DNA from: a virus | DNA: 64,000 nucleotides | Direction: 5' to 3' (one strand) | IMG/VR virus record: IMGVR_UViG_3300031730_000002 | Location: 21,866 to 85,865 of that record | Shown: positions 10,722 through 59,571 of the stretch, one piece after another | Numbering within the stretch: position 1 is the stretch's first letter | Layout: each line of letters begins with the position of its first letter | The notes under the pieces: generated by a model | What the model saw: the letters and a program-made list of their open reading frames with translations, nothing else | What the model was told of the DNA's origin: nothing | The model's database searches: none | Position numbers and translations under genes: made by a program

Positions 10722-11594
10722 ATGAGCCAACTATCCAACTACACCGAGAACGAGCTTGCCGATTTCATTCGAGGGCAGGGAGCGGCGGGCATCAACGCCA
10801 TCTCGCTCTTCTACATCGGGCTTGCGACTGCAGCGAGCGACGGCAGCATCACGGAGTGCTCTGGCACCGGGTATGCACGGCAAGCGTATGGGCGCGGCTT
10901 GACCCAGTGGTGCGGTACTCAAGGCTCTGGCACTACGCTGGCCAGTACTGGGGTCAGCCACGCGATCAGCAACAACAACTCATGCTCCTTTGGCACATCG
11001 GGTGCAGCGTGGGGCACTGCCACACACGCAGTGCTGTACAGCGCAATCACTGGCGGCAATGTCATCGCTTACTGCGAACTGCCCAGTCCGATCTCTATCG
11101 GGTCTGGTGTGCCGGTTAGCTTGGCTGCAGGCGCGATCTCGATGACGTTGGGGTTGACTGGCGGGTTGAGCAACTACCTGTCCAACAAGCTACTCGATTT
11201 TGTGTTTCGCGCCGTGGCCTACACGATGCCGGCCAATCTGTTCTTCGGCCTGTTCACGACCGCGCCGACGAATGCTGGTGGCGGCGTCGAGGTGTCGGGT
11301 GGGGCCTACGCCCGCCAGAGCCTGCCGGCGTCTATGGCTGGCCTCTGCGGTACGCAGGGTGCTGGAACCACAGTGGCCAGCACCGGTACAAGCGGTCGAA
11401 TTGCCAACAACCTGACCCTTGCTTTCCCCACTCCAACGGCCAACTGGGGCACAATCACGCATGAGGCGGTTTTCGATGCTGTGAGCGCTGGGAACCTGCT
11501 CTTCTGGAACGTGCTCGATGTGCCCCGCACGGTGCTCTCAGCCAGCAGCCCGCAGACGCATGCAGCAGACACATGGGAGCTGACCTTTGCCTAA
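10722..11594 (+). CDS. Tail fibre protein with two copies of one domain
   Basis: This 290-residue protein has two repeats, about residues 1-145 and 146-290. Each begins with L-S-N-Y, then L-x-D-F, and continues with L-F, Y-A-R-Q, W/L-C-G-T-Q-G and G-T-T-x-A-S-T-G, then W-G-T-x-T-H-x-x-x. Single-copy proteins of this kind are common tail fibre or tail tip proteins in siphophages. The duplication is visible in sequence; receptor binding is inferred. A shorter related domain follows a Tat signal in the gene at 59194. Confidence 0.72.
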   Translation: MSQLSNYTENELADFIRGQGAAGINAISLFYIGLATAASDGSITECSGTGYARQAYGRGLTQWCGTQGSGTTLASTGVSHAISNNNSCSFGTSGAAWGTATHAVLYSAITGGNVIAYCELPSPISIGSGVPVSLAAGAISMTLGLTGGLSNYLSNKLLDFVFRAVAYTMPANLFFGLFTTAPTNAGGGVEVSGGAYARQSLPASMAGLCGTQGAGTTVASTGTSGRIANNLTLAFPTPTANWGTITHEAVFDAVSAGNLLFWNVLDVPRTVLSASSPQTHAADTWELTFA

Positions 11595-41819: not shown

Positions 41820-43823
41820 TCAGAAGACCAGGTTGATGATTCGAGAGAAGCTGCCCTTGACTCGGCAGCGCACGCTGTTGCGTTGGGTGGATGAGAAGCC
41901 GAGGCCGGACAGCTGACGATCGCTCTCGTCAGTGCGCATCTTGCTTCCCACGAGTTCGAGTGTTTTGCGGTGCGGGGTGAGTTCCTCCTTCAAAAATTCG
42001 TTGTAGAAGCCGCGGGCCTGTCCCTCATTACGGCAAGCCTCCAGCATGAAGAAGTAGTGGCGGTTGCCGGTCTCTTCGCCATCCCAGTGGTTCGGGCTCA
42101 TCATCATCACGTTGACCGGCTGGAAGGTCTGCGTGGTGATGCCCCACATCTGCTTCGACGACTGCGTGCTGGGCAGGGACTCGATGATCTCAATACCCCT
42201 GGCCTTGCTGTACAGAATGTTGGCCACGCCAATCGTGTCCTTGGTGCGCAGCACCTTGTCGTAGACGATGTTGAGCTTTTGCCCGCCGAACTCGATCTCG
42301 ACTTCGAAGCCCACGCCTTCAGAGCGGCGGCTGTAGTTGTTGACCTGCAGCGCATACACGCCTTCACGCATCGTCTTCGCGTCGGCGTAGAAGATGTTCT
42401 CGACCGGCTTGGCCATCATGCCGCTGCCGCCGTTAGCATCGACATCCAGCTTGCCGCCGCACGAACTCTTCATGCTGCGGTTGCCGTAGTAGATGTGGCC
42501 ACCGCCCGGCTCGATCATGTGGAAGTCCAGATCGTCCGTGTAGTCCCATGCAAGGCGGCAGCACAGGTCACCAGTGACGTTGCCGCCGGCTGCCTTGACA
42601 CGCTCCTTGATCGAGTCGGCCACGCCGCCGTTGTATTCCCAGCTGAAGCGGTTGCCCCACTTGAACAACGGCTTCGCAGTCGGGTCTGCCGGCGCCACCA
42701 GCGACATCAGATTGCCGGCGTGACGGTTCTCGAACAGCAGCTCGATCGACTCGGCACGCGGCAGGATGTCGCGGATGAAGGTCTCGATGCCCACGTCCTC
42801 GACCTTGTCGAGCGACTTCTCCTTGACAGCCACCTTGGCCGCCAGATCATCGAACACATCGGCGTTCAGCTTCTTCTTGGCGTTGCGATTGGCGAAGAGG
42901 ATGTTGTTGACCGTGATGTCTTCGATGGTGGCGTAGCGACGCTCCAGCGCCGAGCCCAAGCCGAGTTCGTTGATGGCTTCCTTGGCCTTCTCGATCATCG
43001 CCTTCGTCACCAGCGCAGTCGGCCGCTTGTAGTTGGCCGGTGCGACCTTGTCCTCGAACGCCTTCACCGCCTTCTCCAGATCGACGCCTTCGGACAGGTC
43101 GACTAGCAGCGTGCCGATGACCGTGTTGCGGATCATGCCCTTCGGCGTGAGGTTGGCCCACACGAAGTTGTACTGATGCTCATGCTTGAGAGCGGAAAAC
43201 TTGACCTTCATGTCGGCGAAGTTGGTGACAGCGGCCTTGTGCTCTTCACCACGGTACAGCGCGTTCTGCGAGATCAAGTCGAGCACGGTGTTGATCGCCT
43301 CGTTGGTGATCTCCTGCAAGCCGCGGAGCATCACGTCGTAGTTCGCGCGCCGCTTGCTCAGCTCGGTCGCGATGTCGGCACCCGGCAGCACGAACTGGCT
43401 TGGGATGTTCACGAAGAAGTGCGGCCACGTGTGCACACCGTCGAGCGTGTCGACCAGCGTCTTGTCCGTGCCGGCCTTGGCTTCGTAGTGCAGGAAGGAG
43501 TTCTCGATCGGGTGCGACTTGACCAGCGCGGCCAGCTTGTCGCAGACCGCCTGGTAGTTCGCGTCTTCACAGAGCGCGTCCCAAATCGACACCACCTTGC
43601 CGTCGATGATCGCGACGACATCGCCGACTGCGCGGATGAAGCCCTTGCAGCAGTTGCAGTCGTGTTCGGTGTTCGTCTTGTAGATCGGGTTCGTGCCGGC
43701 CGGGAACGAAGACAGATAGCGTTCCCACATGGCGTCCTTGGAGACGGTGGTGCGGAACATCGGGTACTTCGCCATCGTGGCGAACTGGGCCGCTACAGCG
43801 ACCTTGATGTGTTTGAAGTCCAT
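41820..43823 (-). CDS. 667-residue conserved phage protein with DUF2135-like end
   Basis: The N-terminus (F-P-A-G-T-N-P-I-Y, then E-H-D-C-N-C-C-K-x-F-I-R-A-V-G) belongs to a large family seen in many phages. Residues ~390-540 look DUF2135-like: D-D-L-D-F-H-M-I-E-P-G-G-G-H-I-Y-Y-G-N and C-G-G-K-L-D-V-D. The Cys cluster may bind metal. The start has the leader ACTTCAAAGGA. Neighbours are the N-I-F-E-Q protein and a 54-residue protein. Function unknown; the length and wide spread suggest an important role. Confidence 0.72.
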   Translation of the reverse strand: MDFKHIKVAVAAQFATMAKYPMFRTTVSKDAMWERYLSSFPAGTNPIYKTNTEHDCNCCKGFIRAVGDVVAIIDGKVVSIWDALCEDANYQAVCDKLAALVKSHPIENSFLHYEAKAGTDKTLVDTLDGVHTWPHFFVNIPSQFVLPGADIATELSKRRANYDVMLRGLQEITNEAINTVLDLISQNALYRGEEHKAAVTNFADMKVKFSALKHEHQYNFVWANLTPKGMIRNTVIGTLLVDLSEGVDLEKAVKAFEDKVAPANYKRPTALVTKAMIEKAKEAINELGLGSALERRYATIEDITVNNILFANRNAKKKLNADVFDDLAAKVAVKEKSLDKVEDVGIETFIRDILPRAESIELLFENRHAGNLMSLVAPADPTAKPLFKWGNRFSWEYNGGVADSIKERVKAAGGNVTGDLCCRLAWDYTDDLDFHMIEPGGGHIYYGNRSMKSSCGGKLDVDANGGSGMMAKPVENIFYADAKTMREGVYALQVNNYSRRSEGVGFEVEIEFGGQKLNIVYDKVLRTKDTIGVANILYSKARGIEIIESLPSTQSSKQMWGITTQTFQPVNVMMMSPNHWDGEETGNRHYFFMLEACRNEGQARGFYNEFLKEELTPHRKTLELVGSKMRTDESDRQLSGLGFSSTQRNSVRCRVKGSFSRIINLVF

Positions 43824-58752: not shown

Positions 58753-58961
58753 TTTGGTGTGTCCTTTTCGATCCGTTTGAAATGGCGGCTGCAAGCCGCC
58801 TTGTCCTTGACCCACCGGCCTTCCCAGTAAGCCCAGCAAACGCGAAGCTCCCCGGTCAGGCTGTTGCGGCCGTCTTCGGCGGCCTTCCAGTAGCGAGTGA
58901 TGCCGTAGCAGACCTCAACGTAGGTCGCGTCCGGCGGTGCTTTGGCTCTGGTGAGGGCCAT
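58749..58961 (-). CDS. Unknown small basic protein
   Basis: This 70-residue protein has V-C-W-A-Y-W-E-G-R-W-V-K-D-K and a basic C-terminus. It overlaps both neighbours. Confidence 0.55.
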   Translation of the reverse strand: MALTRAKAPPDATYVEVCYGITRYWKAAEDGRNSLTGELRVCWAYWEGRWVKDKAACSRHFKRIEKDTPK

Positions 58962-59197
58962 CAGTCCTCCTTGAATTCAGGCACACCCGCCGCTTCGAGC
59001 AGCTCGGTGTCCGATGGGTCGATGTAGGGCACCAACGCCTGCAGCTCGGCAAGCTCGCCGTAGCTGATGCGCTCGGCGCGCAGCTCGGTGCGCAGGTATT
59101 CGAGGCGGTTGGGGTCGATGCCGACGATGGCCACGCCTTCGCCGCGTTCGATGGCGCCGGTGACGTGATGACGCAGACATTGGAGCAGCGGAGTCAT
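58961..59197 (-). CDS. Unknown small protein
   Basis: This 78-residue protein has V-A-I-V-G-I-D-P-N-R and an acidic C-terminus. It overlaps the start of the upstream Tat-signal gene region by four bases. Confidence 0.55.
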   Translation of the reverse strand: MTPLLQCLRHHVTGAIERGEGVAIVGIDPNRLEYLRTELRAERISYGELAELQALVPYIDPSDTELLEAAGVPEFKED

Positions 59198-59571
59198 GTG
59201 TTTCCTTTGTCAATGGTGAGAGTGAGAGTCAGCGAGTCGCCCGGCAAGAGGTGCGGTGATTGGCCGTTGTTGATCGGCAGCAGCAAGCCGCCGGCCAGCA
59301 CATGCGTCACCGTGCCCCAGCTGCCGGTCGGGCTCGGGAACCACACAGTGTCCTGCCCTTCGACGTAGGGCACGCGGGCGTAGCCGTTCCCGCTGATCTC
59401 CTTGCCGTCAGGGCCGTAGAGCGCGAGGAAGGCGTCTGAGCGCGGGAAGCTGTCGCCGCCCACGAATCTCGGCTTGGGCAGCCACAGCGGCATGAGGCTT
59501 GTAGGCCGCACGAACGCTGGCGCTGCTGCAGCCGCCAGCATGGCGGTGAGGAAGCTGCGGCGAGGGATCAT
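59194..59571 (-). CDS. Tat-exported protein with a tail-fibre-like domain
   Basis: This 125-residue protein begins I-P-R-R-S-F-L-T with an Ala-rich helix, a good twin-arginine signal. The mature part has I-S-G-N-G-Y-A-R, F-P-S-P-T-G-S-W-G-T-V-T-H and D-S-L-T-L-T-L. These align with both repeats of the tail fibre protein at 10722 (G-x-Y-A-R, F-P-T-P-T-A-N-W-G-T-I-T-H). So a virion-type domain seems to be exported from the infected cell. A role in the envelope, such as receptor masking, is speculation. Confidence 0.6.
   Translation of the reverse strand: MIPRRSFLTAMLAAAAAPAFVRPTSLMPLWLPKPRFVGGDSFPRSDAFLALYGPDGKEISGNGYARVPYVEGQDTVWFPSPTGSWGTVTHVLAGGLLLPINNGQSPHLLPGDSLTLTLTIDKGNT

What the first reader, a model, noticed from the sequence alone, without database searches (positions are those of the whole stretch)
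59194..59571. A tail-fibre domain copied behind a Tat export signal
The mature part of this protein matches both repeats of the tail fibre protein at 10722-11594 at fixed points: G-x-Y-A-R, F-P-(S/T)-P-T-x-x-W-G-T-(V/I)-T-H, and a final D-x-L/W-x-L-T. Here it follows an R-R-x-F-L Tat signal, 48 kb from the structural genes and on the opposite strand. A phage exporting its own adhesion-type domain from the infected cell would be unusual. It might mask receptors, block superinfection or titrate antibodies or decoys.
Basis: partly seen in the sequence, partly recalled or inferred. Interest (0 to 1): 0.8.

Follow-up and report, generated by a model that had tools for sequence, protein, structure and literature searches.

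The report
Tat-leader proteins carrying virion-protein pieces
Many uncultured phages carry a small gene that joins one nearly invariant export signal to a piece of a virion protein, most often their own major capsid protein; the gene flagged here carries a tail-fibre piece instead, and the family may act as a decoy for factors that recognise virion proteins.

Summary
The 125-aa gene at 59194-59571(-) lies in an operon with ATGA overlaps and has a Tat-type leader. Its second half is a shortened Gp80 tail-fibre domain, homologous to both halves of the 10722 protein (hhalign 98.4%).

The larger result is its family. Scanning IMG/VR for the peptide APAxVRxxSLMP, without asking for a twin arginine, gave 118 matches; all 117 with readable upstream sequence have RRx(F/L/I/M) before it. 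The leader is near-invariant, the cargo hypervariable.

In 48 phage contigs, 20 of 50 cargos match another gene of the same phage (E<=1e-3), against 17 of 471 control small ORFs (p=4e-13). Every matched gene is a major head protein. Portal, collar, tail-fibre and tailspike pieces also occur. No cargo matched a recognised non-virion gene. Leader and cargo are under protein-level selection.

Receptor masking fits tail-fibre cargo but not capsid cargo. My preferred, untested model is a membrane-targeted decoy for host or satellite factors that recognise virion proteins. I found no published description, and no leader in 50,697 phage records.

The parts
59194..59571 (-). Gene for the 125-aa Tat-leader/Gp80 protein
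   Evidence: ORF; ATGA overlaps with both neighbours; leader and cargo homologies
59488..59571 (-). Leader, residues 1-28: MIPRRSFLTAMLAAAAAPAFVRPTSLMP; twin arginine, hydrophobic stretch, A-P-A site with a basic residue close by, and the family's SLMP motif
   Evidence: Leader HMM without this row E=1.2e-10; PF10518 19.3 bits, below its 22.7 cut-off; 107-row alignment A1
59215..59439 (-). Cargo, residues 45-119: shortened Gp80 tail-fibre domain
   Evidence: hhalign 98.4% to Gp80 profile; alignment A4; PF23140 17.2 bits
10722..11594 (+). Tail-fibre protein of the same phage with two Gp80 domains (about residues 1-147 and 148-290), homologous to the cargo
   Evidence: PF23140 194.8 bits, two stretches; phmmer 4e-4 from the cargo
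58961..59197 (-). Downstream 78-aa ORF, start codon overlapping the stop of the gene
   Evidence: Sequence; no PHROG match

Best explanation
The gene belongs to a large, apparently undescribed family of phage accessory genes that join a near-invariant Tat leader plus an SLMP motif to an interchangeable piece of a virion protein: where the source can be found it is mostly a segment of the phage's own major capsid protein, here a shortened tail-fibre domain. SHOWN: the leader family, the bias of the cargo towards virion proteins, and selection on the peptide. INFERRED: the leader delivers the piece to or through the inner membrane by the Tat route, and the piece acts as a decoy that binds a factor recognising that virion protein (a host immune sensor or a satellite's capsid-hijacking protein) and holds it at the membrane or carries it out of the cytoplasm. 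I put the anatomy at about 0.9 and the decoy mechanism at about 0.35; the confidence given is for the whole statement.
For: 118 matches to the SLMP-side motif in IMG/VR, 117 of 117 readable ones with RRx[FLIM] upstream that the pattern did not ask for. 20 of 50 cargos match another gene of the same phage vs 17 of 471 controls, Fisher 4e-13. All 15 target ORFs scanned are major head proteins; pooled search: 25 of 29 identified cargos are capsid segments in eight PHROG families, two collar, one Gp80, one unnamed ORF; weaker hits go to portal and tail-fibre proteins; one cargo matches a pectate-lyase fold as in tailspikes. Two phages carry separate leader genes with different segments of one capsid protein. 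Leader codons are fully degenerate; cargo dN/dS 0.07-0.56 in close pairs. Capsid proteins are known triggers of CapRel, Lit and Thoeris (PMC9712102, PMC11312562); the cargo of phage G046 covers the segment aligning with T4 gp23 residues about 93-127, and Gol lies in the first quarter of gp23 (PMC3014915).
Against: No interaction, localisation or phenotype was tested. About three quarters of the 118 cargos have no identified source. Gol is also the most conserved part of gp23, so its appearance may reflect detectability. A known capsid sensor needs the capsid in a certain form (hexameric for Thoeris, section heading of PMC11312562), which a fragment may not mimic. Pieces would have to bind without triggering the sensor.
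Confidence: 0.35

Rival explanations
1. Receptor masking or superinfection exclusion: the exported tail-fibre domain occupies or hides the phage's receptor and blocks later phages.
For: The cargo here is a tail-fibre domain and a few sisters carry collar, fibre or tailspike pieces. A leader to the periplasm is what such a function would need.
Against: Most identified cargos are capsid or portal segments, which do not bind receptors. The Gp80 domain is shortened and may not fold as in the fibre.
Confidence: 0.1
2. Assembly helper or assembly poison: the leader anchors the piece in the inner membrane, where it co-assembles with the phage's own (or a rival's) virion protein and places, times or spoils assembly.
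For: Identified cargos come from the phage's own virion proteins, in 11 of 17 mapped cases from the N-terminal part of the capsid protein. A prophage-encoded block of virion assembly of invaders is known (PMC10884400).
Against: The cargo type changes between capsid, portal and fibre among phages; the gene can lie tens of kilobases from the capsid gene or on the other strand; a poison would also hit the phage itself.
Confidence: 0.18
3. Biased gene capture without a cargo-specific role: the leader is the functional part (or a mobile 5' module), and it picks up ends of abundant late genes, for example through their mRNA, so capsid pieces are frequent by supply.
For: Cargos are hypervariable: 83 singletons and 9 clusters of 111. 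N- and C-terminal segments prevail. Cargo branches are long.
Against: Cargo is under purifying selection in close pairs; different phages keep the same capsid region as cargo; two segments of one capsid protein are held side by side in two phages.
Confidence: 0.2
4. Tat interference: short, poorly folded substrates with a strong leader occupy the host's Tat translocon and change the envelope or energy state of the infected cell.
For: Leader strongly conserved while cargo is not; fragments of virion proteins may well be unable to fold.
Against: Does not explain why identified cargo is always virion protein.
Confidence: 0.08

Closest known systems
Gp80 tail-fibre domain, Pfam PF23140 (the A4 profile matches PDB 8jou_a, 'Virion-associated phage protein')
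   Same: The cargo is homologous to it and keeps most of its invariant residues
   Different: Shortened, below Pfam's cut-off, behind a Tat-type leader, away from the structural genes
Tat signal peptides of bacterial exported proteins (Pfam PF10518)
   Same: Twin arginine, hydrophobic stretch, A-x-A site, basic residue near it
   Different: Followed by a conserved SLMPV(K/R) motif and attached to phage virion pieces; scores below Pfam's cut-off in this protein
Capsid segments that trigger host immunity: T4 Gol/Lit, SEC-Phi27 Gp57/CapRel, Phi80-alpha Mhp/Thoeris (PMC3014915, PMC9712102, PMC11312562)
   Same: Capsid protein, or for Gol a short segment of it, is what the host recognises; one cargo here covers the Gol-like region
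   Different: There it is the virion protein itself that triggers defence; here a separate leader-bearing protein of unknown effect
Prophage-encoded interference with virion assembly (PMC10884400)
   Same: A small phage-encoded protein connected with virion proteins
   Different: No leader or virion fragment is described in the abstract I saw; I did not read the paper

Membership tests
PF23140 Gp80 tail-fibre domain | Score above Pfam's gathering cut-off (27 bits) | tested here: not met
   17.2 bits, E=0.0065
PF23140 Gp80 tail-fibre domain | Sequence homology to the family by profile comparison | tested here: met
   hhalign 98.4%, E=8e-15, residues 45-119
PF23140 Gp80 tail-fibre domain | Same fold | tested here: inconclusive
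   AlphaFold pLDDT 52, pTM 0.40
Tat substrates | Twin-arginine motif, hydrophobic stretch and signal-peptidase-type site at the N-terminus | tested here: met
   Sequence; leader HMM E=1.2e-10 without this row; 117 of 117 readable family members have RRx[FLIM]. Pfam TAT_signal itself scores 19.3, under its 22.7 cut-off
Tat substrates | Tat-dependent export | not testable with these tools
   Needs reporter fusions in tat+ and tatC-deleted strains
Leader-plus-virion-piece family described here | Leader with AAPAxVRxxSLMP | tested here: met
Leader-plus-virion-piece family described here | Cargo homologous to a virion protein of the same phage | tested here: met
   Cargo to the window's tail fibre, phmmer 4e-4 among 6580 ORFs
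Superinfection-exclusion proteins | Blocks adsorption or DNA entry of a second phage | not testable with these tools
   Needs adsorption and plating assays

The most novel reading that the evidence does not exclude
Phages share a modular, Tat-targeted decoy system: one common leader loaded with pieces of the phage's own capsid, portal or tail proteins, which removes host immune sensors or satellite proteins that recognise those virion parts.
Probability: 0.3. Interest if true: 0.95.

Novelty: categorically new. Interest (0 to 1): 0.82.

Why it matters
A conserved export leader attached to interchangeable pieces of a phage's own capsid, portal and tail proteins would be a new class of phage accessory gene. 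If the decoy reading is right, the cargo shows which virion segments are recognised by defences or satellites of uncultured bacteria, which would make capsid sensing there directly testable.

Tried and rejected
A search with the first 50 residues alone found no relatives. A pattern for leader plus Gp80 core found no second example in IMG/VR. AlphaFold of the fusion with 28 sequences gave pLDDT 52 and was not used, so no fold search was run. A tree of coat N-termini and cargos could not decide between one capture and several. Leader queries in 50,697 phage records gave no convincing match; the only near-full-length hit (E=3) lies on the strand opposite to the annotated genes. The plasmid hit in Rhodovastum has a Gp80-like core but no leader, and a profile with it found nothing more. 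Genes next to the leader genes show no constant partner: terminase, methyltransferase, HNH, head and tail genes all occur. Paper searches found no description of the family; only open-licence papers are held.

Full report
The ORF. The gene at 59194-59571(-) encodes 125 aa. It begins and ends with ATGA overlaps with its neighbours, lies about 48 kb from the tail genes and on the opposite strand, in a run of small, mostly unassigned genes. The window is 21866-85865 of an 85,865-base IMG/VR record, a tailed phage with a tape measure protein, DNA polymerase and primase.

The cargo. Residues 45-119 are homologous to the Gp80 tail-fibre domain that occurs twice in the 10722 protein. The match is below Pfam's cut-off, but hhalign to a profile of 27 Gp80 domains gives 98.4%, and the residues L, E, G, Y, R and W-G-T-x-T-H that are invariant in the alignment are kept. 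The N-terminal helix and the DAxxxGN strand are missing. IMG/VR holds 331 relatives; of the 80 kept nearly all are single-domain proteins of about 127 aa without a leader. One, L005, has a Sec-like signal before a full domain.

The leader. Searching IMG/VR for codons of APAxVRxx[S]LMP gave 118 matches in 116 stretches. All 117 with at least eight readable upstream residues have RRx(F/L/I/M), though the pattern did not require it. The consensus is RRxFLxGLxxLxAAPAIVRAxSLMPVK. All six serine, leucine and arginine codons are used at the conserved positions, so selection is on the peptide and not on the DNA. The same pattern in one genome for each of 84,980 bacterial and archaeal species gave 14 matches, about five of them real. 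Nothing convincing was found in 50,697 phage records. The leader is therefore mostly a feature of uncultured viruses. The window's record has one copy.

The cargos. Among 111 proteins the cargo sequences fall into 9 small clusters and 83 singletons. I fetched 48 contigs in overlapping pieces and searched each cargo against its own phage with the leader gene masked: 20 of 50 matched at 1e-3, against 17 of 471 control small ORFs (Fisher 4e-13). The control ORFs are longest-ORF predictions, and the cargos are not fully independent (several carry the same capsid region), so the p-value is indicative. Seventeen of the 20 matches fell in predicted ORFs, 15 different ones, and PHROGs calls all 15 major head protein, in four families; the other three also fall in capsid proteins. 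A pooled search of 118 cargos against 6580 ORFs matched 29: 25 to capsid proteins in eight PHROG families including T4-type gp23, two to a tail-collar protein, one to an unnamed ORF, and the window's cargo to its own tail fibre. Weaker best hits led to two portal-type proteins, one tail-fibre or virion structural protein and one unnamed ORF. PHROGs on the proteins themselves gave only head, tail and connector functions among the named families. Detection bias towards conserved genes would also have surfaced terminases or polymerases; none appeared. Mapped segments are N-terminal in 11 of 17 cases, C-terminal in 3 and internal in 3. Contigs G003 and G040 each carry separate leader genes with different segments of one capsid protein.

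What it does. Receptor masking cannot explain capsid cargos. Known biology gives a reason to mimic capsid segments: CapRel, Lit (through Gol) and Thoeris respond to capsid proteins (PMC9712102, PMC11312562). In contig G046 the cargo matches the part of its capsid protein that aligns with T4 gp23 residues about 93-127; Gol is a 29-residue region in the first quarter of gp23 and its most conserved part (PMC3014915), so this is suggestive, not proof. I favour a decoy or sponge, with the leader moving the bound factor to or across the membrane. That step is inference; assembly interference and biased gene capture remain open, and receptor masking remains possible for tail-fibre cargos such as this one.

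Limits. Hosts are unknown; the few bacterial records with the leader are mostly alphaproteobacterial by title. About three quarters of the cargos have no identified source. No useful structure model was obtained. Export, binding and phenotype are untested.

Noticed in passing
L005:4377-4862: A full Gp80 domain behind a hydrophobic Sec-like signal, not of the family's leader type: a second, independent case of a signal before this domain.
   Followed up: partly
L148:1240-3670 (contig G040:47830-50239) and G040:2859-2936: Three leader genes close together in one phage, two carrying the N- and the C-terminal segment of the same coat protein, plus a fourth leader match elsewhere in the contig.
   Followed up: partly
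L322:5701-6287 (contig G003): Two adjacent leader genes with two different segments (about residues 51-97 and 291-338) of the same capsid protein, on the strand opposite to it.
   Followed up: partly
L463:4884-5258: Rhodovastum atsumiense linear 112-kb plasmid record: a 124-aa protein with a Gp80-like core, PDG-E-S-GY-RVP as in the window protein, but no leader.
   Followed up: partly
window 41820-43823 (-): A 667-aa protein matching PHROG 1735 (unknown function) over its full length, E=1.7e-275.
   Followed up: no
L108, L126, L141, L181 (leader proteins): A cargo cluster with a shared PRCxxCxxxxGMCxxTGGP motif, possibly metal-binding, with no virion source found.
   Followed up: no
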